Translations under genes and position numbers: made by a program
Shown: in pieces, positions 1 through 14,101 of the stretch
Numbering within the stretch: the first letter of the stretch is position 1
Layout of the letters: each line of letters begins with the position of its first letter
Origin: Prochlorococcus sp. AG-363-O06
GTDB taxonomy: Bacteria > Cyanobacteriota > Cyanobacteriia > PCC-6307 > Cyanobiaceae
DNA length: 64,000 bases
Direction of reading: 5' to 3'
Assembly: GCA_003280085.1 (NCBI GenBank)
Contig: QCFY01000001.1
Location: forward strand, 62,001-126,000
Notes under the pieces: generated by a model
The model's database searches: none
What the model saw: the letters and a program-made list of their open reading frames with translations, nothing else
What the model was told of the DNA's origin: nothing

Positions 1-1
1 C

Positions 2-1969
2 TTTTCTAATGATCGCGCCTTAAGGCTTAATGCAGCCAATTGCATGAGAGCGATGGGTAGTTGGGGAAAAGCCAAAAAAATAATCGAAACTCAACTTAAA
101 CATGAACCAGACCATCCTGAATTACTTCAAAGTCTTGCTGATACAGCATTAGCATCAGGTAATTTAAAAGAGTGCACTGAAGTAATTAATAGATTAATAA
201 GAAAAGACAAAAATATTTTAGAAGCTTGGTTAACATTAGGTATATGTGAAGCTAAACAAGGTCATCTAGAAAAATCACTCCAAGCATTTGAAACAGCACA
301 AAAAATCAATCCAGAAGATTTTAGAATCACCGCCAATATAATAACGATTCTCAAAGATTTAGGGCGTTTTGAACTATGTGAAAAAATCATAAATGAATTA
401 CCTGAAAATGGTCATAAGAACTTTGACGTCAAAACTGCTAAAGCAGTTTTATTCATGGCACAGGGGGAAATGGAAGAAGCCTCTATCTTATTATCTTCTA
501 TCACCAAAGATGAGCCTGAAAAGGCAATGAATTGGCTCAATTGGTCAGCATGCCTTAAAGCCCTAAAATACTCTATAGCTCCTCTAACTCTTTTAAAGAA
601 AAGTCTACTCTGGAATCCAAGAAATGCGGATCTTCGTTTGGCTCTTGGCCAAGCACTAGTTGATCTTGGACTTTTACAGCAGACAAAGAATCTTTGGACA
701 TTAAATGAATTAGAAAATATTAAAATAATAGAAAATGATGTGCAAGTATTCAACAAACAGTTTATTGGAATGAGTACTGGATTAGTAGAATTAGATGAAC
801 TCCAGCAGGCATCCAGGCAATGGGAAAAAAAGAAAATAAAAGAAGGTGTTGGTGAATTGTGGCAGGACCACATATTTGAACCATTACAAGCAAGGCGGCT
901 AAGAGTTGGATATTTGTCTGCAGACTTTTGCAATCATCCTGTATCAAAGTTTATGATTCCGATTCTAGAAAATCACAATCATAATTGTTTTGAAGTCTTT
1001 GGCATTAATGCTGGTCCACATAAAGACCTAATGACAGAGCGTGTTAAAGCATCATTTGACCAATGGGTTGATATCCAATTTATTAGCGATTTCCAAGCTG
1101 CAAGAGTTATTGCAGATCTGAGACTAGACTTAATTATCGAATTAGGTGGATTCACTGGCAATAACCGACTTGGATGTCTAGTCCACAAACCTTCTCCTAT
1201 ACAACTAAGTTACCTGGGTTATCCTGCGCCAACATATCTTAAATGCATTGACGGATGGATAGGCGATGAATGTCTATTTGGCGATCTTGAGATAATTGAT
1301 AAAAATGCACATCAATTAATAAATATCTTAGGAGGATACATGTGTTTCTCGCCTGGAGATAATCTACCTATTAAAGAAAGATCATTTACTTCTAAAGTCA
1401 GATTTGGTTCATTTAATCATGCAAGGAAATTAAGTGACCTTACAATCAAGCTTTTTACAGAAGTAATTAACTCAGTCCCAAATTCAGAACTGGTATTAAA
1501 GAGTATTAGCTTTCATGAAAAGGCAGAGCAAATAAGAGTCCAAGAAAAGTTTATAAAAGCTGGCCTAAATAAAGAGAAACTTATAATATTAGATTGGGAA
1601 GAAATGAGTAAAGATCATATGCTGAGATACTCTGAAATTGATATTGCTTTAGACCCTATTCCATATGGCGGAGCAACAACTACTGCAGAAGCTCTTTGGA
1701 TGGGTGTTCCTGTAATTGCAATGGCTGGCAAAGGAATGGTCGGCAGGCTAGCTTCTAGTATTTTAAATGGGGCTGGGCTCAATGAATATGTAGCCTATTC
1801 AATAGAAGAATATGTTCACAAAGCAAAAGCCTTAGCCTCCAAAGGTACTAGAAAAATTCCTTCTAGAGAATCTCTTAGAAGGCAAATTGTAAATTCAGAC
1901 TTTGGAAATGCAAAAAGATTGACTACTAGGCTTGAAGAAGAATACTTACGGCTGGCTAAGAAAATCTAA
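2..1969 (+). CDS. TPR-containing GT41 (SPINDLY/OGT-like) protein O-glycosyltransferase, 5' end outside the window
   Basis: The reading frame stays open to the left edge (14 codons before the first ATG at 44), so the gene is cut at its 5' end and the ATG at 44 is probably internal. Counting from that Met, residues 1-220 form helical TPR-type repeats and residues 286-600 form the GT41 catalytic region. Visible signatures are the ADFCNHPVSKF motif with the family histidine at 298, ELGGFTG, QLSYLGYPAPT, FGSFNH at 454 and PYGGATTTAEALWMGVPV near 541. GT41 enzymes transfer GlcNAc or a related sugar from a UDP-sugar to Ser/Thr of cytosolic proteins. It runs tail-to-tail with a second GT41 gene, sharing four bases at the stops. 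Family assignment is firm; the substrate is unknown, but the RTX-like protein nearby is a natural candidate. Confidence 0.93.
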   Translation, partial: FSNDRALRLNAANCMRAMGSWGKAKKIIETQLKHEPDHPELLQSLADTALASGNLKECTEVINRLIRKDKNILEAWLTLGICEAKQGHLEKSLQAFETAQKINPEDFRITANIITILKDLGRFELCEKIINELPENGHKNFDVKTAKAVLFMAQGEMEEASILLSSITKDEPEKAMNWLNWSACLKALKYSIAPLTLLKKSLLWNPRNADLRLALGQALVDLGLLQQTKNLWTLNELENIKIIENDVQVFNKQFIGMSTGLVELDELQQASRQWEKKKIKEGVGELWQDHIFEPLQARRLRVGYLSADFCNHPVSKFMIPILENHNHNCFEVFGINAGPHKDLMTERVKASFDQWVDIQFISDFQAARVIADLRLDLIIELGGFTGNNRLGCLVHKPSPIQLSYLGYPAPTYLKCIDGWIGDECLFGDLEIIDKNAHQLINILGGYMCFSPGDNLPIKERSFTSKVRFGSFNHARKLSDLTIKLFTEVINSVPNSELVLKSISFHEKAEQIRVQEKFIKAGLNKEKLIILDWEEMSKDHMLRYSEIDIALDPIPYGGATTTAEALWMGVPVIAMAGKGMVGRLASSILNGAGLNEYVAYSIEEYVHKAKALASKGTRKIPSRESLRRQIVNSDFGNAKRLTTRLEEEYLRLAKKI

Positions 1970-4125
1970 TTACCAGAATGCAGCTTCTCCTGATACATTT
2001 CAGTAAATGCTTTTTCCAGATCAAACATCAACGACTTAGCATTACCTAATGGACTCTCAAGAATTTTCTTGCGCCAATCAAGGCGATTATTTCGCAAATT
2101 TTTCACATCTAACGCAGCATTAGATGCAATATCAATATAAGAAGATATATCTTGTGCTACCCAAGATTCTAAGCCTGCTCCCATAAGCACAGCAGTGCTC
2201 ATTCGGCTTACATAATTAGAACCCGCCAATGTAACAACTGGGACGCCCATCCAAAGAGCTTCTGCAGTAGTCGTGCACCCTCCATTAGGCATAGGGTCTA
2301 AGGCTATGTCAATATATCTATATTGCAATAAATGATCCTTTGAAGTAGGTGCAAGGGGCAACCATTCAACTCGTTCAGGGTCTAAACCTGCTCTCAGCAT
2401 TCTTCTACGTAACAAAATCTGAGTAGAAGGATCATCAGGGGAATTTGCCTTTAAAACCAATCGAGATTTGGGTACTTTTTGTAAAATCAGTCCCCAGATT
2501 TTTAATGTCAAATCTGAGAACTTCCTATTGTGATTAAATGAACCAAAGTGAACTTCACCGAACGGCGATTCAGTGACATTTATAGATGATTCAGGTAAGA
2601 AATTACATGGTTGCCAAGCTAAAAATGGTCTTTTTAATCGCCAAAGCTTTTCAGTATGCCATTCATTAAATTGAGCAGGAAACAGATGGTTGTCTCCAAG
2701 CCAATAATCCATATTCAATATACCTGCAGACGCGAAGTAACCTAAATAATTAACTTGTACAGGAGCCATTCTTGCTATAAAGCCAGGTATGAAATTACCT
2801 CCTGTCCAACCTGATAAATCAATGGCAAGATCAAACTTTAATGATCTGATCGCAGCCACTTTATGATGATCAATTTGACTAGAAACATCAACAAATTTTA
2901 TATCTTTAATTCTTTTACATTTATCCGCCCAAGATTCTGTTCCATGATCGGTCACACTAACTACATAATGTTCATGAAACCTTTGCCCTATTGAGGCCTC
3001 CAAAAAACTCAATAAAAAGCGACTAACCGGGTGAGGGCAAAGATCGCCAATCACCCAAGCAATTCGGAGAGGATGAGAAGACTGATGATTTTGAATTCTT
3101 GGGACTCCTGAACCAGCATTTTTATGCAATTTGTATGAATTAGTTTTTTCAACAGATGAAAGAAAATTCTCAATATGTGCTTTATAACCTGGTGCTTCAA
3201 CGCTCGCCAATTGCATGGTCATATTGCTATTTAGTAAGCAATGCTTAATTGGATCAGCAGTGACCTCATCATGAGTCCACTGCAACCAGTCAGAGTGGCC
3301 ACCCATGTCATAAGTACAAAGTTGGTTGGCTAGATTTACTTTGACGGGCCTAATAGATCCCCAAACTTGTTGCAAAAGGGCAGAACGCCTAGCTAAAGCT
3401 GGTTGACGCTGAAAAAGCTTTACTGTTGTTACATGGCATAAAAGTTCTGGGAATTCACCATGTCTGCCAAGTGCTTCCCGTGCAGTGGGGACAACTAATG
3501 GTGAACTACGCGCATCAATAACCGCTTCAAGTAATTGGGTCCAAAAATGTCGATCATTAGCAGCTCTACCAGATAAAGGCTGAAGCAAATCCAGAGCTTC
3601 TTTATGACGAGACTGCATCGCCAACATTCTTGCCTTCAAACGAAAGGCCTCAAGCGGCCAAGGTTTGGGTAAAGCATTTAGAAGGTCCTCTGCAGCAGAG
3701 AACCTTCTAACTTGCAATTGTGCTGCAGTATGAGATAAGAGTAATAAAGGGAATTGATACTGATCACGCCAAAAACCTATACCTTGTTCATCCAAGGTCT
3801 TCAAGTCCTGAAGTTGTAATTGAAGCTGCGCAAATAACCAACGAATTTCTGGTGGAGTTGGGTTCTCAGCCCAAAGAGATTCAACTAAAAATTGAAACTC
3901 TCCAAATCTGAGCTGAAGCCACCTGATATGAGCTAGAAGAATGCGATATTCATGCGAACTCGAGATCTGGGCCAAAGCAATTAAACAATTTGCTTCTGCA
4001 ATATTCCAATTCCCAAGCTTTATTTGTGCTGCTATCCACTCTGGAGATTGTGCAACTCCTTGAATACGTGAAAAGAACTTTGGATCTTTAATTTCATCTG
4101 GCCATGCCAGTAGCAACTTGTACAT
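1966..4125 (-). CDS. Second TPR-like GT41 (SPINDLY/OGT-like) glycosyltransferase
   Basis: A 719-residue protein. A longer frame to 4308 exists, but its first 61 codons would read back through the terminator and into the neighbouring RTX-like gene, so I use the ATG at 4125. Residues 1-300 are alpha-helical, degenerate TPR-like. Residues 352-700 are GT41: GDLCPHPVSRF with His365, DLSGWTGGNF, FGSFNHNRKFSD at 527 and PNGGCTTTAEALWMGVPV at 613. Where the first GT41 protein has GYPAPT, this one has GYFASA near 463, so the acceptor or donor pocket may differ. It lies directly downstream of the RTX-like gene in the same direction, separated by a strong terminator. It probably glycosylates Ser/Thr of a protein; the partner is inferred, not shown. 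Confidence 0.92.
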   Translation of the reverse strand: MYKLLLAWPDEIKDPKFFSRIQGVAQSPEWIAAQIKLGNWNIAEANCLIALAQISSSHEYRILLAHIRWLQLRFGEFQFLVESLWAENPTPPEIRWLFAQLQLQLQDLKTLDEQGIGFWRDQYQFPLLLLSHTAAQLQVRRFSAAEDLLNALPKPWPLEAFRLKARMLAMQSRHKEALDLLQPLSGRAANDRHFWTQLLEAVIDARSSPLVVPTAREALGRHGEFPELLCHVTTVKLFQRQPALARRSALLQQVWGSIRPVKVNLANQLCTYDMGGHSDWLQWTHDEVTADPIKHCLLNSNMTMQLASVEAPGYKAHIENFLSSVEKTNSYKLHKNAGSGVPRIQNHQSSHPLRIAWVIGDLCPHPVSRFLLSFLEASIGQRFHEHYVVSVTDHGTESWADKCKRIKDIKFVDVSSQIDHHKVAAIRSLKFDLAIDLSGWTGGNFIPGFIARMAPVQVNYLGYFASAGILNMDYWLGDNHLFPAQFNEWHTEKLWRLKRPFLAWQPCNFLPESSINVTESPFGEVHFGSFNHNRKFSDLTLKIWGLILQKVPKSRLVLKANSPDDPSTQILLRRRMLRAGLDPERVEWLPLAPTSKDHLLQYRYIDIALDPMPNGGCTTTAEALWMGVPVVTLAGSNYVSRMSTAVLMGAGLESWVAQDISSYIDIASNAALDVKNLRNNRLDWRKKILESPLGNAKSLMFDLEKAFTEMYQEKLHSGN

Positions 4126-4131
4126 AACAAC

Positions 4132-4159
4132 AAAAAAAAGGGGGGCTAATGCCCCCCCC
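4132..4159 (-). terminator. Strong rho-independent terminator after the RTX-like gene
   Basis: On the minus strand, 21 bases past the RTX-like stop codon, a G8 run, a short loop and a C6 run form a very stable GC hairpin (4140-4159). It is followed at once by eight U (A-run 4132-4139 on the plus strand). This is the clearest intrinsic terminator in the window. It lies just before the ATG (4125) of the next minus-strand gene, so it separates the RTX-like mRNA from the GT41 gene or sharply reduces read-through. Confidence 0.9.
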
Positions 4160-4180
4160 TCCTGAAAATAAACCAGGTTA

Positions 4181-6349
4181 TCAACCGAGACCTGTGATTG
4201 CAGAGGATGCAACTGTGGTCCATGTGATACCCAATGTGGCGAAGGTAGGCTTGGAGTTACCAGCCACAAAGATGGTTCTCTGATCTCCACCTGAACCAAT
4301 TGATACAAGTGAGGTGAGGTTATTCCAGGTCACTTGAGCTCCAGTAGTACCGAACTCAGAGTCAAGAGCAACGGTGAAGTTCAGTGCCGTTGTAGACGCC
4401 ATTGAGAAGTTCAAGGTGTCGTTACCAGAGTTGAGACCGAAGAAGTAGGTGTTCGTCGCAGCATTGGTGTTGGTGTAACCACCACCAGCGAGGTTGATGT
4501 AGTCGTTACCGGCACCACCCTTAATAGAAGTGCTAGTTCCTACAACACCGAAGCTGATTGTGTCATCACCGTCTCCAGCAGTAACTAGAGAACCAGTTAC
4601 ACCATTACCGAACAAGAATGAATCATTACCAGAACCACCAATCAAGGTTGTGTTGTTGATTAGCTTAGTGGAGGTTACTAATCCTGCGGAATCAGAACTG
4701 CCAATAACGGAAGATGCATCAATCTGCGCTGTGAATGAAAGGGTGTCAGACCCAGTTCCACCCCTAATGGTGCTGTCGTCGTTGATTGCGCCACCGAACT
4801 CCAAGGAGTCAGTACCGGCTCCACCAGTAATGGAAGCGTCTTTGGTTGCACCACCAAACATAAAGGTGTCTTTACCGGCTCCACCAATGATGGTTGCCTT
4901 AGTAAGAGTGGCAGCACCTGTAACCCAGTTAGCGCCAGAACCTGTATCAACGGTAGAAGTATCAACTCCTGTGCCTAGTGCCAAGGTGTCGTTACCAGCT
5001 GCTCCGTAAACGTTTGCAGAGGTAAGGGTTCCGACCAATAGAGAATCTTCTCCGCCAGCGGTATCAGTTGCACTGTCATCGCCGAATACGGAACCGCCCC
5101 AAAGCTGTGAGATAGAGATACGGTCAGTACCGCCAGCACCGTAGAAGGCAGCTTCTGAGTTTCCGGCTGTACCTTTGGAGTCGATGATGATGGTGTCATT
5201 ACCCGTTCCAGCGTTAACCGTGCTGCTAACCATGGAACCCATGACGGTCACAAAGTCAGCGCCAGCAAAAGTCTTGATCTGGTTAGAGATCAGCTGACCT
5301 GTTGCAATGCTACCGACCTGGAGAGTGTCAGCACCAGCGCCACCATAAACAGTACTTGTTTGAACTGTTTCAGCCTGAATGTTGATGGAGTCATCACCAG
5401 TAATAGTTCCGGTGCTATCAGAACCATAGATAGTGGAACTCAATACAGCATTGGTATTGCTAAGGAAGAGAGTGTCGCTACCCAAGTTTCCTTGAACTGT
5501 TGAGGTAGCAAGTGAACCTGCACCAGTTACAAAGCTAATGGAGTCAGCACCTTGGCCGCCATATATGGTTGAAGCAGAAATCTTAGAGCCGTGAACGTAG
5601 ATGCTATCTCCGCCACCGTTACCCTGGGTCCAAGATTTACTGATCTCACTCTTAAATTGAATTGAATCAGCACCATCAAGAGAGGTGTCGTTAAAGGAGC
5701 CACCGTAAACAGATGTTCCGCCTTTAACCTTGTTGCTCAATTCGATTGTGTCCTGGCCTAAGTTGCCAGCAACAGTTGCTGCAGTGGCACTTGAAGCAAG
5801 GGTGACCGAGTCATTACCCTGACCGCCATATACGGTTGAGTCAGTAGTAACTATTCCAGCCACATGAATGGTGTCCTTGCCACCATTACCTTGAAGAAGG
5901 CTGGCAGAAGCTGAGCCACTGATGCTGATTGAATCAGCACCGTCTGTACTTGTGGCATCACTAAGGTTTCCACCGTAAATGCTAGATGAAAACAGATCGT
6001 TTGCGATGTTGATGGTGTCATTTCCAGCTGAGCCGCGAAGCACTGCAGCTGTTGTTGACTTGGTTAACGAAAGGGTGTCATTACCTGAACCACCATCCAT
6101 CGTTGAGCTATTGAAGCTAACTGTGATGGCAAGTGAATCGTTACCAGTGCCTCCAAATACGGAGGTTGCATCAGCGTTGGAGGTGAGATTAATTGAGTCG
6201 TTACCTGCGCCAAGATCGACAATGTCACTTGGGCCAGCGCCAATTACTTCGTCTTCGCCCCCGAGGGCAATGATTGAGTCTGCACCTGTTTGGCCAAGCA
6301 GGGTGTTGGCAGTATCCGTGCCTTGGATGTTGTTGTAGCTCGATGTCAT
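4181..6349 (-). CDS. RTX-like beta-roll repeat protein, probable secreted surface protein
   Basis: A 722-residue protein made almost entirely of short repeats. Units of about 18-21 residues contain one RTX-type nonapeptide (GGxGxDxLx, for example GGSGNDTLS, GGQGNDSVT) followed by a Ser/Thr-rich strand. Repeats run from about residue 45 to 640, then a non-repetitive tail of about 80 residues ends in ITGLG. I see no cysteine and no N-terminal signal peptide. In RTX proteins this pattern goes with Ca2+-dependent folding outside the cell and a C-terminal type I secretion signal; no secretion genes are in this window. The gene is richer in G+C than its neighbours (31 of 60 in 4201-4260) and uses C-ending codons, which fits high expression. 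It has its own promoter and terminator. Being an S-layer or cell-surface protein is inference. Confidence 0.88.
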   Translation of the reverse strand: MTSSYNNIQGTDTANTLLGQTGADSIIALGGEDEVIGAGPSDIVDLGAGNDSINLTSNADATSVFGGTGNDSLAITVSFNSSTMDGGSGNDTLSLTKSTTAAVLRGSAGNDTINIANDLFSSSIYGGNLSDATSTDGADSISISGSASASLLQGNGGKDTIHVAGIVTTDSTVYGGQGNDSVTLASSATAATVAGNLGQDTIELSNKVKGGTSVYGGSFNDTSLDGADSIQFKSEISKSWTQGNGGGDSIYVHGSKISASTIYGGQGADSISFVTGAGSLATSTVQGNLGSDTLFLSNTNAVLSSTIYGSDSTGTITGDDSINIQAETVQTSTVYGGAGADTLQVGSIATGQLISNQIKTFAGADFVTVMGSMVSSTVNAGTGNDTIIIDSKGTAGNSEAAFYGAGGTDRISISQLWGGSVFGDDSATDTAGGEDSLLVGTLTSANVYGAAGNDTLALGTGVDTSTVDTGSGANWVTGAATLTKATIIGGAGKDTFMFGGATKDASITGGAGTDSLEFGGAINDDSTIRGGTGSDTLSFTAQIDASSVIGSSDSAGLVTSTKLINNTTLIGGSGNDSFLFGNGVTGSLVTAGDGDDTISFGVVGTSTSIKGGAGNDYINLAGGGYTNTNAATNTYFFGLNSGNDTLNFSMASTTALNFTVALDSEFGTTGAQVTWNNLTSLVSIGSGGDQRTIFVAGNSKPTFATLGITWTTVASSAITGLG
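4432..6217 (-). repeat. RTX-type repeat region within the 722-residue protein
   Basis: About thirty degenerate protein repeats of GGxGxDxhx type, each followed by 9-12 Ser/Thr-rich residues ending in a pattern such as STVYGG. The DNA is similar but not identical between units, so the repetition is selected at protein level and is not a DNA satellite. Boundaries are approximate. Confidence 0.8.
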
Positions 6350-6521: not shown

Positions 6522-7742
6522 TCAAGAGGTTGCCTGAAATCCCTCCAAAAGTATGTTCCAAGCAGCCAAACCTCTATCAGAGCTATAAGCAAACGCCGCC
6601 AATTTTGCAGCTGCTCCAAAACGTTGTCTTAATTCAGAATCATCTAACAAAGACCCAATGGCTTCTGCTTGAGCATTTGGCTCGAAAAAGTCGACCAGTA
6701 AAGCATTTTCGCCATTCCTAAGCACCTCCTGAACTGGGGGTGTTGCACTGGCAACAATGCTGCAACCAGCGGCCATAGCCTCTAGAAGACTCCAGCTCAA
6801 TACAAAAGGAACAGTGAGATAAAAATGCACATCACTAATTGCTAGAAGCCTCCAATAATCAACGTCTTGAAGCATTCCCAACCAATGAGTTCTTACAGGA
6901 TCCAGGCCAATTTCAGTTTTCGCCCATTCCCCCCAAGTCCTGCCATCACTACGATTGGCGCCATAAGCAACAATGTCCGCACCAGCAACCAAAACATGCA
7001 AAGAAGGCCTTTTTTTCTGTAAAAGCGCTATTGCTTCCATTGCTTGTGGGAACCCTCTGTATTCTTCAAAACCACGGCTTACATAGGTTAAAACCTCAAT
7101 ATTTTTAGATTGAGGCAAACAACTAAATGGCTCAAAAGTCTTCTCTCGCAAGGCTCCTAGAGTATCCACGTCGATACCTTCATGAATAACTTGAAGCCTG
7201 CTACGAAGATGCTGTGGAAATTGGCTCAATTGCCAATCAGTAGGAACCACTCCTGCATCACAGTGGGCAAGTTCTAAAAGTGTCTGTGCATTCCAAGTTC
7301 GTAATCGCATTGCCCTATCAGGCTCAACTGCACCCCTTCTTAAAAAATCAACATCAGAACCAACAGCGTTGTAATACCACTCAAATAAACATATTCGGCG
7401 GGCAAGGGGGAAAACATCTGAAATGTATAAACCATTCCCAAAGCCAACATGATTAATCACACAATCTGGCTCCCAGCCCTCAGCTTTCAACTTGCTACAT
7501 GCACGATATGCCGCCTGTCCCGCTAAAACTGCAGAATCCATACGGCGTAAATAAGGGTGAAGACTCTCACCACCTCCTCCTCGATGTGGGTGATATCCAA
7601 GAAGTCGAATCTTATGGGATTCAGGCGCATGCCATTCAAGCGCTTGAGCCAAAAAAACAACTTCATGACCAGCCTCAACTAAAGCTGGTGCGAGACGTCT
7701 GAACTGTGCAGGATAATTATGATGTGAAATAAGAATGCGCAA
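6522..7742 (-). CDS. GT4 glycosyltransferase (Glyco_trans_4_3 N-domain plus Glycos_transf_1)
   Basis: A 406-residue GT-B enzyme. It starts MRILISHHNYPAQFRRLAP, the usual first strand of this GT4 group, and the C-terminal nucleotide-sugar half carries SWSLLEAMAAGCSIVAS with the conserved acidic residue. The start codon is TTG (7742). No ATG lies upstream in frame before the neighbouring gene, and the protein sequence shows this is the true N-terminus. It is the last gene of a four-gene minus-strand run (10511 to 6522). It is clearly paralogous to the gene at 17795-18997, which also starts with TTG. Donor and acceptor cannot be told from sequence. It likely acts at the cytosolic membrane face in surface-glycan or glycoprotein assembly. 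Confidence 0.92.
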   Translation of the reverse strand: MRILISHHNYPAQFRRLAPALVEAGHEVVFLAQALEWHAPESHKIRLLGYHPHRGGGGESLHPYLRRMDSAVLAGQAAYRACSKLKAEGWEPDCVINHVGFGNGLYISDVFPLARRICLFEWYYNAVGSDVDFLRRGAVEPDRAMRLRTWNAQTLLELAHCDAGVVPTDWQLSQFPQHLRSRLQVIHEGIDVDTLGALREKTFEPFSCLPQSKNIEVLTYVSRGFEEYRGFPQAMEAIALLQKKRPSLHVLVAGADIVAYGANRSDGRTWGEWAKTEIGLDPVRTHWLGMLQDVDYWRLLAISDVHFYLTVPFVLSWSLLEAMAAGCSIVASATPPVQEVLRNGENALLVDFFEPNAQAEAIGSLLDDSELRQRFGAAAKLAAFAYSSDRGLAAWNILLEGFQATS

Positions 7743-7753
7743 GACAACGCTAA

Positions 7754-8683
7754 TTAAGATGCTTGATTTAAAGCTTGGGCAAATAGCTCTTGATAGAGAT
7801 TAAATAGCCAAGGACTTAGCTTCGTTTCTGCTCCTTCAACTTGCATAGTGCCTGGCAAGTAAAACAACATTGCAATAAGGAATGCATTCGTAGCTCCTGG
7901 CGTCCCAAAACCTCCATCTTGAGAAGGTTGAAGCTTTGTAGTAACTGATTGTTTAATTTCTGTCTCAACAGCATTTAAAGATTGATTTTGCAATCCACTT
8001 CTAACCATTGCCGCATAGCGATCTCGTAATTCAGTTGACCAAAGCTGCTCAAGTTGATCTTCAGGGCAATTTTGTATTGCTTTAGCGAAAGCGATACGTA
8101 CATCTCGCAATTCAAGGAGGATCTCCTGATCCTCAGGGTCAATGTAATAAAGATTTGAAAGACCCAACATTCGATTTAACTGAACCCGATCACCAATTAA
8201 TGACTGCAATGTTGCTGGGAAAGGACCAAAGTTTAAATCTGGAGGTGTAACTGCAGGTTGAACAATTTGCTTAGCTGTTGATTGACTTGGCTGGCTTCCA
8301 GGTTGCGATTGTGATTGTTCGTATAAATCTAAATAAGCAGGCAAAAGCCAAGTAGGCAGATTTTCTTCAGGACTAGCTATTCGCATAAGACCTGGAGGAG
8401 AGAACAACCAATTAGCTAGACATAGTTGAATTGCGCCAGGACTTTTAAATCCAGCCTGAAGTTGATTGCCGATTGCGTCTCTCAAAGCGACTTGATCAGA
8501 AGAAAACTTTGAGTCAGGTGTTAACTGCTTTACAAGAGCACAAGTGGATTGTCCTAACCCTGATGTGTTCCATAAAGATTCCAGAAGATCGTCAGGGCAA
8601 GCCAGCCAAAATCTTGCCAATAAATCACGTTGTCCTAAAGAACTACATTCAGCTGCAGACCAAGATTGTGAGGGAAGCTCCAC
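7754..8683 (-). CDS. Uncharacterised protein with an internally duplicated domain
   Basis: A 309-residue protein I cannot assign to a family. It contains two related copies of a helical domain of about 100 residues. The first (about 25-125) has ARFWLACPDDLLESLWN, a middle helix, PGAIQLCLANWLFSPPG and LPTWLLPAYLDLYEQ. The second (about 198-305) has AKAIQNCPEDQLEQLWS, PGATNAFLIAMLFYLPG and LSPWLFNLYQELFAQ. A Gln/Ser/Pro-rich linker separates them near residue 130. There is no signal peptide or membrane segment. The start is GTG at 8683; the frame is closed by a stop just upstream. It lies between two GT4 genes in one operon, 12 bases before the next, so a helper or scaffolding role for glycosyltransfer is possible but unproven. 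Confidence 0.8.
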   Translation of the reverse strand: MELPSQSWSAAECSSLGQRDLLARFWLACPDDLLESLWNTSGLGQSTCALVKQLTPDSKFSSDQVALRDAIGNQLQAGFKSPGAIQLCLANWLFSPPGLMRIASPEENLPTWLLPAYLDLYEQSQSQPGSQPSQSTAKQIVQPAVTPPDLNFGPFPATLQSLIGDRVQLNRMLGLSNLYYIDPEDQEILLELRDVRIAFAKAIQNCPEDQLEQLWSTELRDRYAAMVRSGLQNQSLNAVETEIKQSVTTKLQPSQDGGFGTPGATNAFLIAMLFYLPGTMQVEGAETKLSPWLFNLYQELFAQALNQAS

Positions 8684-8712: not shown

Positions 8713-8955
8713 TCACCTGCGGCGCACCTTTTTAAATTCTTGCTGAGCGAGCCAAAAAGTAACCAACGCCAAAACACCCCCCATAAAGATAGGCGCCATC
8801 ATGATTTGAGCAATCCATATCAATCCTGCAAAAAGCATCCAAATAACACAAGCCACATAAGGCAGTATGCAGATCGCGGGGAAAAGCCAATTTTTCCAGC
8901 GACTTTTGATCAATGCATGCTTTATACGTGTTAAGCGTGGAGGGTTCCAACTCAT
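8713..8955 (-). CDS. Small two-helix membrane protein
   Basis: An 80-residue hydrophobic protein with a basic N-terminus (residues 1-22), two predicted membrane segments (about 24-44 and 48-70) and a basic tail QQEFKKVRRR. Its ATG overlaps the stop of the upstream GT4 gene in an ATGA arrangement (8952-8955), implying translational coupling. An overlapping 94-codon frame on the same strand is a shadow. No known family is recognised. Its place suggests a membrane anchor or partner for the neighbouring glycosyltransferase. Confidence 0.72.
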   Translation of the reverse strand: MSWNPPRLTRIKHALIKSRWKNWLFPAICILPYVACVIWMLFAGLIWIAQIMMAPIFMGGVLALVTFWLAQQEFKKVRRR

Positions 8956-10511
8956 AGATGTTTACTTGCGATGTCTTTTTGAAGATTGTTTTTAAGAGCA
9001 GATGGTACAGAAGCAAGCATTAATTGCCACAATTGTAATCGCGCTTTTTTCAAAGCTTCTGGTAAGGCATCAAGAGTCATTGTATGTTCGCTAGAAATTT
9101 TTTCATTGCTTGGATAGCCAGAAAATGCCCTAACAGGATCCAGAGTAAGTGTTGTTTTTTGAGATAAATGCTTTGCCGATGGTGCGGAAGCACGGATTTG
9201 ATCTAATTCCTTAAACAACTCTCTATAAGAAGAAATGACCACTGAAGCTTCGAAGCAAGATGCTGCCCTAATAGATGCAGCTCGTCCCATTGCAGAACGC
9301 AATGCAGGTGAAGCAATAAGTGCCATTAATGAACTAACTGCCTCATCAAAATCGACTTGAACCAATTGCCCCAAAGCACCAGATATAGCTGGGAAGCTTT
9401 GAATAGCAGTGAACTGTTGCCAACCCAATGAAAATGACAAATCAAGGGCAGATTTGCTCCATTTAGTCGGTATTAAGAACCCATCTACCCCATGACGAAC
9501 AAGATCTCGATAACCATCCCAATTACTTGCGAGAACAGGAATGCCAAGACTCATTGCCTCTGCAACAGCCAATCCAAAAGTCTCCTGAATATTGTCTACT
9601 AATGAAATCGCAACATCAGCTGCTACAAGCGCTTTTATCTTTAATGATTCCGAAACAGGATTTTTCCCACCAAGCCTGACAAATCGAATATTCGGACACA
9701 ATTTTCTTAATGATTCCAATGAAGCTTCATTTTCAGCTCCATCATCAGGACCACATTCAATAAACCAAATTTCTTGATTTAACTCATAGGCAGCTTTCTC
9801 CAAAACCCTATAGGTGAACCAAAGGTCAGCCTTAGTTAAATATGAAAGGCGGCCCAACCAAATAACTACAGAAGCATCTAATGGAATATTGATTTCTTGA
9901 CGAGCCTGATTTTTAGTTGGCGCTGCATCCTGCATTTGCCTTACCCCTAAAGGTAAAGGAATGATTGGAAGCTGAGGCTTATGGCTTTGCAGGAAAGAAG
10001 CATTACCTTCACTTCGTCCGATTAATTGTTGTTGACGATCAGCAATCAAATTCTCAACAACATCTCGCCCCGCCGTACTACTGCAAATCAATGCATCCCA
10101 TTCATGAATAGGTTCAGTTACCAGTTCAAATACATGGCCTAAAGCAGCCGGTGTAGACAACGTATGTATTTGCCCAATTAAAGAAAAGGAAGCGGGCCCA
10201 GCTATTTGTCGCCACTGTGCCCATCTACCAATAGAAGGATCAGGAATAAATAAACCACCCCATGGTGCAATCTTTCTTGGATTCAATAAACCTATTGGCT
10301 TCAATGGACCTTTAAAGCCATATTCTCTTAGGGTAGGGAGCAACCCTTCTAACCATTGCGTATTAGCACTGGCCAACGCCATTGGAGTAGTAGATGCAGC
10401 TTCGCACCAATGCCGCATTAAGGTCCCACCCGCCCAACGCCTGCCATTCAGCGGTCCTCCTGCAGGAAGCAAGTCGGAACTTGTAAGAAGTACTGGGAGA
10501 GTGTCTGTCAA
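8952..10511 (-). CDS. GT4 glycosyltransferase, long form
   Basis: A 519-residue GT-B protein. The C-terminal domain has VIWLGRLSYLTKADLW and the donor-binding stretch QETFGLAVAEAMSLGIPVLA, followed by NWDGYRDLVRHGVDGFLIPT. It is a paralog of the protein at 27376-29043, with the same order of motifs and a similar C-terminal extension beyond the catalytic fold. The only usable start is TTG at 10511; the frame upstream holds no ATG before a stop. It is first in the run of four minus-strand genes and overlaps the small membrane-protein gene by four bases. It faces the GT4 gene at 10569 with 57 bases between starts. Substrate unknown. Confidence 0.9.
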   Translation of the reverse strand: MTDTLPVLLTSSDLLPAGGPLNGRRWAGGTLMRHWCEAASTTPMALASANTQWLEGLLPTLREYGFKGPLKPIGLLNPRKIAPWGGLFIPDPSIGRWAQWRQIAGPASFSLIGQIHTLSTPAALGHVFELVTEPIHEWDALICSSTAGRDVVENLIADRQQQLIGRSEGNASFLQSHKPQLPIIPLPLGVRQMQDAAPTKNQARQEINIPLDASVVIWLGRLSYLTKADLWFTYRVLEKAAYELNQEIWFIECGPDDGAENEASLESLRKLCPNIRFVRLGGKNPVSESLKIKALVAADVAISLVDNIQETFGLAVAEAMSLGIPVLASNWDGYRDLVRHGVDGFLIPTKWSKSALDLSFSLGWQQFTAIQSFPAISGALGQLVQVDFDEAVSSLMALIASPALRSAMGRAASIRAASCFEASVVISSYRELFKELDQIRASAPSAKHLSQKTTLTLDPVRAFSGYPSNEKISSEHTMTLDALPEALKKARLQLWQLMLASVPSALKNNLQKDIASKHL

Positions 10512-10568: not shown

Positions 10569-11750
10569 ATGAAAGTTCTTTTGATTACAAACCTTTATCC
10601 ACCTCAGGAATTAGGTGGTTATGGGAGATGTATGGCTGATTATGCATGGGGTTTACTTCAAAAAGGACATTATGTTGAAGTTATAAGTAGTGATGCAAAA
10701 TATCTAGGCAACTCTGGACATGGCCCAAACGGAGAAAAAGTTCATAGAATACTCACTCTTAAAGGTAGTTTCGAAAGGGGAGTAGAAATATGGAGTGACA
10801 AAGAAAAGTGTAAGCTTGCCGATGAAAATAATAGGAAAGTATGCAATTGGTTAATCAACAAAGAAAGCTGGGATAGCATACTCATAGGAAACATAGATTT
10901 AATTAGCATAGATATTCTTTCTTTATTACTAAAAAAAGGTTTACCAACTGTGCATCATATAGGCTTTGTAGCGCCACCATACCCTCCACATTACTATCCA
11001 AGGGAAGGGAATTATAAGCTTGTTTGTGCTAGCAATGCAGTAAAAAAATCATTAATATCGGAAGGCTTACCAGTTTCAGACTCAGAAGTTATTTATCCAG
11101 CAATCCGAGAAGATTTATTCGGCATAAAAGGAACCAATCGAGAACTCCCAGAGCCTCTAAATAATAGAAAATTAGATGAAGAGTTAGGGACAAGGAGACT
11201 ACCAATAAGAATAGGCTTTGCAGGACTTCTGATGGGCAGTAAAGGTGTTCATAATGTTGTGGAAGCAATGTGCATCTTGAAAAATAAAGGAATAGAAGTT
11301 ACTGGTTATTTAGCTGGTGATTCATTCCAAGTTGGCTATAAAGAAGCTTTAGAGAATATACTTATAAATAATGGACTAAATCACACAGTTAAGTTCGTAG
11401 GAAGACTTACAAGAAGTCAACTTGCAAGATTTTATGTATTACATCATATAGTAGTTTTCCCGTCGATATATCCTGAAGCATTTGGGATTGTTGCTGCAGA
11501 AGCAATGGCCAGCGGAATAACACTTGTAAGTAGCGGAGTAGGAGGAGCATCGGAGGCATTCGTGGATGGCTTTTCAGGCCTAAAATTCAAACCTGGTGAC
11601 TCAGAAGACTTAAGTAATGTCATCTGTAATATCATGAAGGAGCCTCAAAAACTAATCGATATTTCTTGTCAAGGCCAAAAATATTGCCTCGAGAACTTTA
11701 GCTCAAGTGTATATACGAGTAAATTAGAAAAGTTACTCGCAAAAGAATAA
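10569..11750 (+). CDS. GT4 glycosyltransferase
   Basis: A 393-residue GT-B enzyme starting MKVLLITNLYPPQELGGYGR, the classic GT4 N-terminus with a glycine-rich loop. The donor-site motif is PEAFGIVAAEAMASGITLVSS (split around residues 300-320), where the two glutamates contact the nucleotide sugar. ATG start; the length is normal for the family. Divergent from the TTG-started GT4 gene to its left. The next gene on the same strand is a GT10 enzyme about 140 bases on. Likely retaining; sugar unknown. Confidence 0.92.
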   Translation: MKVLLITNLYPPQELGGYGRCMADYAWGLLQKGHYVEVISSDAKYLGNSGHGPNGEKVHRILTLKGSFERGVEIWSDKEKCKLADENNRKVCNWLINKESWDSILIGNIDLISIDILSLLLKKGLPTVHHIGFVAPPYPPHYYPREGNYKLVCASNAVKKSLISEGLPVSDSEVIYPAIREDLFGIKGTNRELPEPLNNRKLDEELGTRRLPIRIGFAGLLMGSKGVHNVVEAMCILKNKGIEVTGYLAGDSFQVGYKEALENILINNGLNHTVKFVGRLTRSQLARFYVLHHIVVFPSIYPEAFGIVAAEAMASGITLVSSGVGGASEAFVDGFSGLKFKPGDSEDLSNVICNIMKEPQKLIDISCQGQKYCLENFSSSVYTSKLEKLLAKE

Positions 11751-11890
11751 ATTAGAACAAATCAAAAATTGATAAAAAGATGTAAATGGATATAAACGGA
11801 GCTTGCATTCAAACAATTCTACAATAAAAATCGATCATAGCTTATAATTTGATTCGAAACTCTATTAAAAAAATATCATCTGACAGGAAA

Positions 11891-12787
11891 ATGAAAATAG
11901 CCTTGCAAAACACGAGCTGGGGGGAAATTTCAATCCTAAGGCAAACTTCACAATATTCAGGACTAGTAAAGAATGGAAGTTATCTTATTAACAAAAGCCA
12001 ATTCCAAGTAGCAGATTATGGGATGATAAATAATATAGATTCAGATTTTCCCGAAATTAAAAAGGAAAGAAGAGTATTTATTTATATGGAGAACCCAATT
12101 ATATGGATCCCTGATAAAGAACTAATTGCTAATTGTGGATACTTTATATCACCATTTGATCTTTCAAGTCAATTACCCAAACACGTAAAGTTTATAAGAA
12201 GTCAACCTTGTGTACCTTGGTTTTATGGTATTGATTTTTGTACCAATAGTGGCCTTATACATAAACCTTTGCGCTCAAAAATTGAACTTGATAGAATTGA
12301 AAGCTTAGAGCCTCCCAGGAAAAGTAAATTGCTATCAATAATTGCAAGTGGGAAAGCAGGAACTCCAGGCCATGCCTGGAGGCATGAAATAGCGAATAAT
12401 GTTAAAAATTATTTTGGAGATAATGTCGATATTTTTGGATTTGGGCATAAGCCAATTCCAGACAAAAGAATAGCTATTGATCCATATTATTTCTCAATTG
12501 TTATTGAAAATATCGAAGAAGATTTTTATATTACAGAGAAAATAGCTGATGCTTTGATTGGCTGGTCAATGCCAATATATGCAGGGGGGAAAAAGGTTAA
12601 TGACTTATTAGAAAGAGAAGTGCCTAATATAAAATTTGGCTGCTCAGTGGAAGAGGCGATATTGGCCATCAAAGCAGCTATTTCTATAGGAGTCCCCCCT
12701 CATCATGAATTAAAGAAAATGCGAGACAATGCTATTGACCGGCTAAATCTCTTTACAGAGATGCCCAGGATCCTTAATAGCCAATAA
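11891..12787 (+). CDS. GT10 family glycosyltransferase (alpha-1,3/4-fucosyltransferase type)
   Basis: A 298-residue protein when started at the ATG at 11891, which follows a purine-rich aggaaa; an in-frame TTG at 11849 would add 14 residues and lacks such a site. Residues 199-222 hold the GT10 donor-binding signature FSIVIEN...EDFYITEKIADAL, followed by PIYAGG. GT10 enzymes usually transfer fucose from GDP-fucose to GlcNAc or glucose, but bacterial members vary. No GDP-fucose synthesis genes (gmd, fcl) are in this window. It precedes rfbG and rfbH on the same strand, so a different deoxysugar donor cannot be excluded. Confidence 0.85.
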   Translation: MKIALQNTSWGEISILRQTSQYSGLVKNGSYLINKSQFQVADYGMINNIDSDFPEIKKERRVFIYMENPIIWIPDKELIANCGYFISPFDLSSQLPKHVKFIRSQPCVPWFYGIDFCTNSGLIHKPLRSKIELDRIESLEPPRKSKLLSIIASGKAGTPGHAWRHEIANNVKNYFGDNVDIFGFGHKPIPDKRIAIDPYYFSIVIENIEEDFYITEKIADALIGWSMPIYAGGKKVNDLLEREVPNIKFGCSVEEAILAIKAAISIGVPPHHELKKMRDNAIDRLNLFTEMPRILNSQ

Positions 12788-12914
12788 AAATTTTTAATTG
12801 AATTTAGTTTCTTTTAACGTCCAAATCAGGAGAAATTTGATTGATGAATGACTTATAATGGGTAGAGTAGCTTGAAATGGTTTAGGGATTTATTTACTTC
12901 CTTGAGACTGTTAA

Positions 12915-12961
12915 TTCGCATAAGCGAAATAGTGCTAAGGAATCTAATCATATGATTCCTT
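12915..12961 (+). promoter_or_regulatory. Two adjacent hairpins upstream of rfbG
   Basis: Within the 216-base gap between the GT10 gene and rfbG there is ttcgc-ataa-gcgaa (12915-12928) and then aaggaatc (12937-12944) with its perfect complement gattcctt (12954-12961). No U-run follows either, so they are not clear terminators. They could be 3'-end structures of the GT10 mRNA or part of the rfbG leader. Confidence 0.35.
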
Positions 12962-13003
12962 CTACTAACAAGCCAAAGTTGTGCATCAAGATTCATTAGA
13001 GCC

Positions 13004-14101
13004 ATGCATTTAACAGCCCATAATTTTTGGAAAAGTAAAAGAGTTCTTATAACTGGACATACAGGCTTTAAAGGCTCATGGCTATCTATATGGCTAAAAG
13101 AGTTAGGTGCAGAAATATGCGGTTATTCCCTAGAGGATTACACCAAAGAAATGCTATTTAATAAAATAAAAAATCGCCTTATTAAAGATAAGGTGGATGG
13201 TCTTAGCTTTTCTCATAAGATTGGAGATATAAATGATTTCTCTAATCTTAGCAGTGTAGTTGAGAATTATCAGCCCCAATTTGTATTCCACCTTGCTGCA
13301 CAGTCACTAGTTAAAAGAGGGTATGAAAAACCCATCTTAACTTGGGAAACGAATACAGTTGGTACAATAAAATTATTAGAATCTCTAAAGTCTTTGCGAG
13401 AAAGGTGTATTGTAATAGTTATAACAACTGATAAGGTTTATGATAACAAGGAATGGGCCTATGCTTATAGAGAGATTGACCAGTTGGGAGGGAAAGACCC
13501 ATATAGTGGAAGCAAAGCAGCCGCTGAATTAGCAGTAAAAAGCTGGCGAGATAGTTTTTGTGGAGATAAAAAACACCAAACTAAGTTTCTGAAAGTTGTT
13601 AGCGCTCGGGCAGGTAATGTAATTGGAGGAGGCGACTTTGCTGAGGACAGAATTGTACCAGATGCAATCAAGGCAATTGAATTAAAGGGAAAGTTAAAAA
13701 TAAGGAATCCAAAATCAACGCGACCCTGGCAGCATGTGCTGGAACCCTTAAATGGTTATTTAATGCTAGCGGAGAAGTTATATAGAGAAGATGATTTTTA
13801 TGGCAAAAGTTTTAATTTCGGACCTAGTTCGGATAATGAAAGATATGTCTTAGACTTAATTAAAGCTATATATAGTCATTGGGAAGGTTCATGGGAAGTC
13901 TATGACTCATCAGCCGAGCCACAAGAGTCAAGATTACTCAAGCTGGATTCAAGCAAAGCATTTGAAGAACTTGGATGGAAAGCTAAATGGGACTTCAAAA
14001 CTACTGTTAAAAAAACGGTTGAATGGTATAAAGATATCGCCAATGGTCAAGATCCATATGAAAGGACCCTGAAAGATGTGTGCTCATACAAAGCAGAGTA
14101 A
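13004..14101 (+). CDS. rfbG: CDP-glucose 4,6-dehydratase
   Basis: A 365-residue extended short-chain dehydrogenase. The NAD-binding GHTGFKGSW loop lies at about residues 18-26, and ITTDKVYDNKEW with YREIDQLGGKDPYSGSK gives the active-site Tyr/Lys pair (YxxxK). These are hallmark sequences of RfbG/DdhB. It converts CDP-D-glucose to CDP-4-dehydro-6-deoxy-D-glucose, the first committed step to CDP-3,6-dideoxyhexoses. rfbH follows 33 bases later. The enzyme that makes CDP-glucose (RfbF) is not in this window and must lie elsewhere, or the pathway differs. Confidence 0.93.
   Translation: MHLTAHNFWKSKRVLITGHTGFKGSWLSIWLKELGAEICGYSLEDYTKEMLFNKIKNRLIKDKVDGLSFSHKIGDINDFSNLSSVVENYQPQFVFHLAAQSLVKRGYEKPILTWETNTVGTIKLLESLKSLRERCIVIVITTDKVYDNKEWAYAYREIDQLGGKDPYSGSKAAAELAVKSWRDSFCGDKKHQTKFLKVVSARAGNVIGGGDFAEDRIVPDAIKAIELKGKLKIRNPKSTRPWQHVLEPLNGYLMLAEKLYREDDFYGKSFNFGPSSDNERYVLDLIKAIYSHWEGSWEVYDSSAEPQESRLLKLDSSKAFEELGWKAKWDFKTTVKKTVEWYKDIANGQDPYERTLKDVCSYKAE

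What the first reader, a model, noticed from the sequence alone, without database searches (positions are those of the whole stretch)
2..6349. RTX-like Ser/Thr-rich protein next to two GT41 enzymes: candidate glycosylated surface-protein system
The window shows a 722-residue, cysteine-free RTX-like protein, followed at once by two GT41 protein O-glycosyltransferases and preceded by a GT4 operon. GT41 enzymes modify Ser/Thr, and this protein has Ser/Thr-rich strands in every repeat. Established knowledge: S-layer and RTX proteins can be glycosylated. The pairing of enzyme and substrate is inference.
Basis: partly seen in the sequence, partly recalled or inferred. Interest (0 to 1): 0.75.

Follow-up and report, generated by a model that had tools for sequence, protein, structure and literature searches.

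The report
Candidate sugar-coated surface protein cassette
A block of about ten genes, kept together in some marine cyanobacteria, appears to make a calcium-binding surface protein, attach sugars to it inside the cell and export it; some relatives carry a different pair of protein-sugar enzymes in the same slot, which helps to tie the enzymes to the protein.

Summary
The 722-residue RTX protein (4181-6349, minus) is Cys-free and modelled as a beta-solenoid closest to the Marinomonas antifreeze adhesin 3p4g (Z 29.7, rmsd 3.0, 283 residues). One GT41 gene follows on its strand; the second is convergent and starts 200 bases outside the window. Beyond that edge lie a TPR-GT9-like gene, a PpiC-like gene and HlyB/HlyD type I exporter genes. 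Orthologues of the adjacent GT41 occur in 18 of 400 family genomes, beside an RTX gene in 18 of 18; eight other GT41 loci had none. In 5 genomes a related RTX gene is followed instead by two Maf-like enzymes (flagellin O-glycosyltransferase family), with NeuB within 21 kb in 4 of 5; NeuB is absent from 5 near-complete GT41-type genomes. A terminator ends the RTX gene in 20 of 21 such loci (control 0 of 105), suggesting much coat protein and less enzyme. Best reading: a modular cytoplasmic O-glycosylation and type I export cassette for a surface coat. Against it: interrupted RTX frames in 2 of 18 loci, and similar RTX loci without either enzyme. Donor and attachment are unproven.

The parts
4181..6349 (-). 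RTX surface-protein gene, 722 aa, Cys-free; predicted beta-solenoid with calcium-type loops on one side and Ser/Thr-rich turns on the other
   Evidence: RTX gene beside GT41a in 18 of 18 loci
4134..4163 (-). intrinsic-terminator-like hairpin plus T-run between the RTX stop and the GT41a start codon
   Evidence: an element of this kind in 16 of 16 intact GT41-type and 4 of 5 Maf-type loci, 0 of 105 control gene ends
1966..4125 (-). GT41a, about 719 aa, glycosyltransferase family 41 with a divergent N-terminal half
   Evidence: PF13844; nearest solved 5djs and SPINDLY; HPV and RK motif positions kept in 17 of 17
1..1969 (+). GT41b, TPR plus GT41, 722 aa; its first 200 bases lie before the window (L005:15801)
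   Evidence: PF13844 and TPR; nearest solved SPINDLY; HPV and RK motif positions kept in 17 of 17
6522..7742 (-). GT4 glycosyltransferase (PF12000 + PF00534)
   Evidence: found in 16 of 17 loci with the ORF filter used
7754..8683 (-). 309-aa protein of no Pfam family, predicted all-helical
   Evidence: in 17 of 17 loci
8952..10511 (-). GT4-type glycosyltransferase (PF00534)
   Evidence: match over 40% identity in 11 of 17 fetched stretches
10569..11750 (+). GT4 glycosyltransferase at the far flank, on the other strand
   Evidence: match over 40% identity in 11 of 17 fetched stretches

Best explanation
The region is one end of a dedicated surface-glycoprotein cassette. The RTX gene is transcribed strongly and mostly stops at the hairpin behind it; read-through gives less GT41a. 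While the RTX chain is still unfolded in the cytoplasm, the GT41 pair (GT41b with clear TPRs) attaches sugars to some of its many Ser/Thr residues, and the GT4 and TPR-GT9-like enzymes probably extend or vary the glycan. The PpiC-like protein may keep the chain export-competent. The HlyB/HlyD exporter, with an outer-membrane pore encoded elsewhere, moves it out in one step, and it folds in calcium-rich sea water into a long beta-solenoid that coats the cell. Shown: gene content, order, conservation, predicted folds and families, terminator pattern. Inferred: RTX as substrate, cytoplasmic timing, Ser/Thr linkage, export by this exporter, surface location, relative expression. Unknown: donor sugar and the role of the 309-aa protein.
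For: RTX next to GT41a in 18 of 18 loci, and GT41b, TPR-GT9-like, HlyB and 309-aa genes in 17 of 17 loci not cut by a contig end. Exporter genes in the block. RTX and GT41a distance matrices correlate at r = 0.86, the highest RTX value, though other block genes reach 0.80-0.85 and GT41b 0.72. Five genomes have two Maf-like enzymes in the same slot behind a related RTX gene (5mu5 match 3.6e-25). Terminator behind the RTX gene in 20 of 21 GT41/Maf-type loci, 0 of 105 control ends. HPV and RK motif positions kept in 17 of 17 of both GT41s. Precedents: FlmG of Caulobacter, a cytoplasmic OGT with a flagellin-binding N-terminal domain (PMC7591256, abstract and section 10); SwmA 'appears to be glycosylated' and oscillin is highly glycosylated, both cyanobacterial RTX proteins (PMC3034196, passages).
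Against: No glycan or proteomic data. In 2 of 18 loci (Synechococcus WH7803, L093/L082, and G083, L096) the RTX frame is interrupted while both GT41 frames are open; in G063 (L091) the RTX frame is open and GT41b is split in two. G066 has two GT41b-like genes with the exporter genes at a contig end (L138) and a large RTX gene on another contig (L137). Fourteen of 15 third-type exporter loci have an RTX gene and no GT41 or Maf-like gene was recognised in them, so export does not need these enzymes. Ser/Thr excess is moderate (26.6% vs 21.4%) and the loci are related, so its P value overstates. HlyB and HlyD fall below the curated NCBIfam cut-offs (671 of 725.55; 181.3 of 208.65). RTX-HlyB distance correlation is weak (0.41).
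Confidence: 0.68

Rival explanations
1. The GT41 and other glycosyltransferases build a soluble or lipid-linked polysaccharide (LPS or capsule) and the RTX gene sits among them only because this is the cell-envelope island.
For: The rest of the window is rich in sugar genes (GT90, GT61, GDP-mannose-dehydratase-type, nucleotidyl transferase) and several GT4 genes flank the block.
Against: GT41 is a family of protein glycosyltransferases (recalled; nearest solved relatives are SPINDLY, 5djs and OGT). The RTX-GT41a adjacency holds in 18 of 18 loci, the slot is filled by Maf-like proteins in five others, and the terminator layout is shared.
Confidence: 0.15
2. The GT41 pair acts as N-glycosyltransferases (HMW1C type) on Asn-X-Ser/Thr sequons of the RTX protein.
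For: Sequons number 296 against 187.2 (sd 11.2) in shuffles of the 16 orthologues.
Against: The RTX motif itself (G-N-D-S/T) makes sequons, and 13 RTX proteins without GT41 show a similar excess (126 vs 85.2; Maf type 49 vs 37.2). The NGT equivalog model scores 16.9 bits for GT41b against a cut-off of 1000 and is not listed for GT41a; the solved proteins listed for both are SPINDLY, OGT and bacterial OGT-like entries.
Confidence: 0.08
3. The RTX protein is an unglycosylated structural coat (S-layer-like) exported by the neighbouring exporter, and the GT41 pair modifies the exporter or other cell proteins.
For: Third-type loci carry a similar RTX gene and exporter with no GT41 or Maf-like gene recognised (15 loci read).
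Against: Many third-type loci still carry GT4 and TPR-GT9-like genes. GT41a lies directly behind the RTX gene in 18 of 18.
Confidence: 0.09

Closest known systems
SwmA of Synechococcus WH8102 and oscillin of Phormidium (cyanobacterial RTX surface glycoproteins; PMC3034196, passages of section 30)
   Same: RTX repeats, cyanobacterial, outer layer, reported as apparently or highly glycosylated; a passage of PMC7522525 puts a beta-glycosyltransferase in the swmA island
   Different: The enzyme family is not named in the passages read; SwmA could not be compared by sequence because no held genome could be identified as WH8102
FlmG flagellin O-glycosyltransferase of Caulobacter crescentus (PMC7591256; abstract and section 10 read)
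   Same: Cytoplasmic OGT-type enzyme with an N-terminal substrate-binding domain that modifies a protein before export
   Different: Substrate is flagellin; donor is pseudaminic acid, whereas 5 near-complete GT41-type genomes here have no NeuB match
Maf flagellin glycosyltransferases (PF01973; 5mu5, which the PDB calls 'uncharacterized protein', named Maf from recall)
   Same: Two Maf-like genes fill the GT41a slot in five related loci, with NeuB within 21 kb in four of the five
   Different: No GT41 there; the acceptor is inferred to be an RTX protein, not flagellin
TibC/TibA (4q1q, 'TibC-catalyzed hyper-glycosylated TibA', Foldseek rank 11, E 0.0042)
   Same: A beta-solenoid surface protein heavily glycosylated by a dedicated enzyme (recalled)
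   Different: Autotransporter and heptosyltransferase; no RTX, no type I exporter (recalled)
RsaA S-layer of Caulobacter (PMC3034196 section 29 read; 6p5t)
   Same: RTX, type I exporter genes beside the structural gene, very high expression; the review says S-layer proteins lack Cys
   Different: Section 29 mentions no glycosyltransferase pair; anchored through LPS
MpAFP antifreeze adhesin of Marinomonas (3p4g; species name recalled)
   Same: Beta-solenoid with calcium loops; best sequence match (3.7e-19) and best fold match (Z 29.7, rmsd 3.0 over 283)
   Different: Ice binding; linked glycosylation genes not looked for

Membership tests
RTX proteins (PF00353) | glycine/aspartate-rich calcium-binding repeats over the curated cut-off | tested here: met
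   40.4 bits, cut-off 23; commonest motif spacing 20, not 9 or 18
RTX proteins (PF00353) | export by a type I system with an uncleaved C-terminal signal | not testable with these tools
   HlyB/HlyD-type genes in the block; similar C-terminal ends in six orthologues; export untested
GT41 | PF13844 match over cut-off | tested here: met
   129.4 and 117.4 bits, cut-off 25
GT41 | N-terminal TPR superhelix | tested here: inconclusive
   GT41b: TPR_19 77.8 bits over cut-off 25; GT41a: 18.6, under it
GT41 | catalytic His and Lys positions (named from recall of OGT work) | tested here: met
   HPV and RK motifs in 17 of 17 of each; the Lys and a His align with SPINDLY
HMW1C-type N-glycosyltransferase (NF049992) | equivalog cut-off 1000 bits | tested here: not met
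   16.9 bits for GT41b, not listed for GT41a
Type I secretion ABC/MFP (TIGR01846, TIGR01843) | curated NCBIfam cut-offs | tested here: not met
   671 of 725.55 and 181.3 of 208.65; both are the top NCBIfam models for these proteins, so it probably works like one; PF00664, PF00005 and PF13437 are over cut-off
Maf glycosyltransferases (variant loci only) | PF01973 over cut-off and match to a solved Maf | tested here: met
   against full membership: PF20157 19.1 under its cut-off of 23.5, PseD model 28.7-43.3 under 670
S-layer protein | two-dimensional lattice on the cell | not testable with these tools
   acidic, Cys-free, terminator behind the gene are only consistent with it
SwmA orthologue | sequence orthology to SwmA | not tested
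   no SwmA sequence on hand; one search covered 34 genomes of one genus without identifying WH8102

The most novel reading that the evidence does not exclude
Picocyanobacteria carry a modular coat system in which one RTX/type I export chassis accepts interchangeable pairs of cytoplasmic protein O-glycosyltransferases, either two GT41 enzymes using an ordinary nucleotide sugar or two Maf-like enzymes using a nonulosonic acid, so that the cell's protein coat is glycosylated before type I export and can be re-sugared by swapping a gene pair.
Probability: 0.45. Interest if true: 0.76.

Novelty: new variant of a known kind. Interest (0 to 1): 0.62.

Why it matters
Glycosylated RTX surface proteins of cyanobacteria are in print, but in what I read the enzyme families were not named. 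This locus offers enzymes, candidate substrate and exporter in one block, also in Synechococcus, which can be cultured, and an unusual natural experiment: GT41 and Maf-like pairs in the same slot. If true it would tie protein O-glycosylation to type I secretion in some of the most abundant photosynthetic cells, with possible consequences for phage and grazer recognition, and would give GT41 enzymes a natural acceptor to test.

Tried and rejected
Search of the RTX protein alone in genome contigs found no relative; the GT41a alignment then gave 10 named loci. Sequon excess as a sign of N-glycosylation was rejected because RTX proteins without GT41 show it too. Ser/Thr richness alone was rejected as decisive for the same reason. 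Nonulosonic acid as a general donor of the GT41 type was rejected: NeuB has no match in 7 of 18 such genomes, 5 of them 99% complete (G075, G080, G103, G229, G268), and in 0 of 18 does it lie on the same contig within 21 kb of GT41a (in several drafts it is on another contig). The 309-aa protein: no Pfam match under 0.01 in its first member, and only scattered weak ones (best 0.057) among 21 members; no Foldseek match under 0.001; best VIA row Z 5.8, rmsd 6.8 over 156 residues, below the level that the tool calls meaningful, so its fold is undecided. TPR-GT9-like enzyme as a TibC-type heptosyltransferase: the PDB matches shown fall on its TPR part (best 60 of 231); GT9 and LPS-heptosyltransferase models match it only under their cut-offs; undecided. 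GT41a outside the family: in 194 class genomes (some of them family members) 7 matched at 1e-80, two of these being G000 and G083; the other five matched in the catalytic part only.

Labels that rest on weak matches: 'PpiC-like' on a NifM-model match of 27.5 bits (cut-off 168.2) and on recall; 'GT9-like' on PF01075 at 19.1 bits (cut-off 22); the cyclic-nucleotide-type domain of HlyB on PF00027 at 23.8 bits (cut-off 27.5).

Coverage limits: the 400 family genomes are drawn evenly from a larger group. The HlyB profile had 8 of 12 rows of the GT41 type, so its scores lean that way. Third-type ORFs were compared by blastp with the window's proteins and, except L140, with four Maf-like proteins, not with Pfam; none of these 15 genomes has a PF01973 match. 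Two of the 15 were not used in the RTX statistics (L159 cut, L161 without RTX in the stretch). G020 was left out of the 17-locus comparison (contig edge); the interrupted RTX frames of G083 and G268 were left out of RTX comparisons. RTX-profile hits without a GT41a orthologue include G077 (RTX at a contig end; GT41b and exporter at another contig end), G181 and G266 (contig ends), G341 (a 1032-aa RTX with no glycosyltransferase nearby), and the variants G134 and G066 with GT41b-like pairs. The control of 105 gene ends requires a co-directional neighbour; third-type RTX genes need not have one, so their 12 of 12 is weaker evidence. The general scan counts 9 terminator-like sites against 7.2 (sd 3.2) in shuffles; five of the nine are nested forms of the one hairpin described.

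Literature: searches (open PubMed Central library only) listed no paper that I recognised as describing this locus. I read passages of PMC3034196, PMC4949707 and PMC7522525, section 29 of PMC3034196, section 10 of PMC4949707, and the abstract and section 10 of PMC7591256; the rest are listings. One search remained unused.
Full report
What is there. The window lies in a 1.42-Mb draft genome (77% complete, 38 contigs) as C1:62001-126000. The ten named loci with a related GT41a are eight Prochlorococcus single-cell records, Synechococcus WH7803 and a Vulcanococcus MAG, so it is a picocyanobacterium (inference). The RTX ORF 4181-6349 (minus) is real: 722 aa, no Cys, PF00353 over cut-off. GT41a follows it on the same strand after 55 bases. 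GT41b is convergent with GT41a and its first 200 bases lie before the window. Upstream on the RTX strand are a GT4 gene, a 309-aa protein of no Pfam family and another GT4-type gene. Beyond the left edge, on the minus strand, lie a TPR protein with a weak GT9 match (591 aa), a PpiC-like protein (245 aa; weak NifM-model match), an HlyB-type ABC transporter (1012 aa, with a sub-threshold cyclic-nucleotide-binding match at its N-terminus) and an HlyD-type adaptor (430 aa).

Conservation. With an alignment of six GT41a proteins I searched 400 family genomes. 18 have an orthologue over most or all of its length (E below 1e-160); the next matches are at 1e-84 and weaker and cover the catalytic part, being GT41b or other GT41s. 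In all 18 the neighbour of GT41a is an RTX gene. Leaving out G020, whose contig ends inside GT41a, 17 of 17 carry convergent GT41b (split into two frames in G063), the TPR-GT9-like gene, HlyB and the 309-aa gene; the PpiC-like gene and the GT4 gene next to the RTX gene were found in 16 of 17 and HlyD in 9 of 17, the fetched stretch ending before or within HlyD in the other 8. Eight GT41 loci of other subfamilies in the same family had no RTX neighbour in the stretches read (one had an ORF with three such motifs). Mean identities among loci are RTX 40% (15 loci), GT41a 38%, GT41b 42%, HlyB 66% (17 each). RTX and GT41a distances correlate at 0.86, but other block genes reach 0.80-0.85, GT41b 0.72 and HlyB 0.41, so this shows co-inheritance more than a specific pairing.

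Structure of the RTX protein. AlphaFold2 with a 16-row alignment gave mean pLDDT 86.8 and pTM 0.80, a long beta-solenoid. The best solved match is 3p4g, a calcium-dependent beta-helical antifreeze protein, by sequence profile (3.7e-19), Foldseek (3.5e-05) and VIA (Z 29.7, rmsd 3.0 over 283 residues; next row 18.8). The commonest motif spacing is 20 residues (54 of 214). Ser/Thr crowd the turn before the second strand and its first residue (43, 51, 53 and 67% at positions -7 to -4). The same positions hold 36, 20, 23 and 61% in Maf-type and 34, 28, 50 and 53% in third-type RTX proteins, so the pattern is stronger here but not unique. Overall Ser/Thr is 26.6% in 16 GT41-type, 22.2% in 5 Maf-type and 21.4% in 13 third-type proteins.

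The slot swap. RTX-profile hits led to two genomes, G007 and G024, where the RTX gene is followed not by GT41 but by two proteins with PF01973, the domain of Maf flagellin glycosyltransferases (family use recalled). One matches the solved protein 5mu5 at 3.6e-25, and the flagellin-modification model PseD matches weakly. A PF01973 search of 400 family genomes gave 13 with a match, 11 over the cut-off, 8 of them strong. In five (G007, G024, G142, G163, G287) a pair follows an RTX gene; an HlyB gene lies on the same contig in 5 of 5, and PpiC-like and HlyD genes were seen in 4 of 5, the stretch read for G142 ending inside HlyB. In two more (G093, G320) a single one follows a roughly 790-aa Cys-free protein (DUF4214 found in one of the two); then come an unassigned ORF of about 250 aa, HlyB, HlyD, and a dehydratase and aminotransferase of the kind used for pseudaminic acid (Pfam checked in L150 only). 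G222 has a single one, with no RTX or HlyB gene seen in the stretch. NeuB lies within 21 kb of a Maf-like gene in 7 of the 8 genomes (not G163), against 0 of 18 GT41-type genomes for GT41a on the same contig; 7 of these 18 have no NeuB match at all, 5 of them 99% complete. Both enzyme kinds are known for direct O-glycosylation of flagellin in the cytoplasm (Maf: abstract of PMC11339370 in the listing; FlmG: PMC7591256, section 10), and that section notes that Caulobacter uses FlmG where it has no Maf. The swap is therefore the strongest argument that this slot holds enzymes that modify the RTX protein.

Third type. Fifteen further exporter loci of intermediate HlyB score were read. Fourteen have an RTX gene in the stretch (423-589 aa in the 13 used), usually with GT4 and often with TPR-GT9-like or TPR genes; no GT41 or Maf-like gene was recognised beyond short TPR matches, and none of these genomes has a PF01973 match. 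This is the main argument that the GT41 pair is not needed for export.

Expression layout. A hairpin with a T-run lies between the RTX stop and GT41a. A scan for such an element within 110 bases after the RTX gene finds one in 16 of 16 intact GT41-type and 4 of 5 Maf-type loci (0.09 of 21 expected from shuffles), against 0 of 105 other gene ends with a co-directional neighbour within 200 bases in the same stretches, and in 12 of 12 testable third-type loci, where the next gene is not always co-directional. In several GT41-type loci the T-run touches the enzyme's apparent start codon. This fits an abundant structural protein with enzymes made by read-through, or from a separate start not seen here.

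Enzymes. GT41b is a TPR-GT41 protein nearest to SPINDLY among solved structures; GT41a is nearest to 5djs and SPINDLY, which tie. The two are paralogues over most of their length (hhalign 8.6e-73). HPV and RK motif positions are kept in 17 of 17 of each. The donor is open: proximity to SPINDLY, an O-fucosyltransferase by recall, makes GDP-fucose a candidate beside UDP-GlcNAc, but this was not tested. The N-glycosyltransferase model does not fit.

Doubts. There is no biochemical evidence. In WH7803 and G083 the RTX frame is interrupted while the GT41 frames are open, and in G063 GT41b is split while the RTX frame is open; these could be sequencing errors, recent losses or phase variation. G066 has GT41b-like and exporter genes at a contig end and its RTX gene on another contig. 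SwmA, the obvious comparison, could not be tested. The exporter proteins fall under the curated NCBIfam cut-offs, though these are their top models.

Verdict. The finding is real, and its interpretation is the best reading at about two in three. It is a new variant of known kinds (RTX surface glycoproteins; cytoplasmic flagellin-type O-glycosylation), with the exchange of GT41 and Maf-like pairs on one type I export chassis as its most interesting feature.

Noticed in passing
L134, L141, L152, L153, L154: Two Maf-like (PF01973 or blastp-related) genes directly behind an RTX gene in five genomes, in the slot held by GT41a in the window's type of locus.
   Followed up: yes
L150:6536-18431, L151:6243-18105: A roughly 790-aa Cys-free protein (DUF4214 in L151) followed by one Maf-like gene, an HlyB/HlyD exporter and dehydratase/aminotransferase genes of the pseudaminic-acid kind (Pfam checked in L150).
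   Followed up: partly
window 7754-8683: A 309-aa protein with no Pfam or NCBIfam match, predicted all-helical, present in 17 of 17 loci beside a GT4 gene.
   Followed up: partly
window 4134-4163: Terminator hairpin whose T-run lies just before the start of the downstream enzyme; the same layout in nearly all related loci.
   Followed up: yes
L093:5571-10429, L096:7736-10490, L091:11768-13919: Interrupted reading frames: RTX in Synechococcus WH7803 and G083, GT41b in G063.
   Followed up: no
L101:3446-19901 (G134), L137 and L138 (G066): Variant loci with a much larger RTX protein (1484 and 2138 aa) and two GT41b-like genes with a GT4 gene between them.
   Followed up: partly
L135:5732-7753 and 11729-13450: A protein with SWM_repeat (PF13753) and a similar-looking second one (not scanned) near an RTX gene and a 309-aa-like gene in G266.
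   Followed up: no
window 15837-43112: Large envelope-sugar island (GT4, GT90, GT61, nucleotide-sugar enzymes, methyltransferases, a radical SAM protein) between the cassette and mutS.
   Followed up: no
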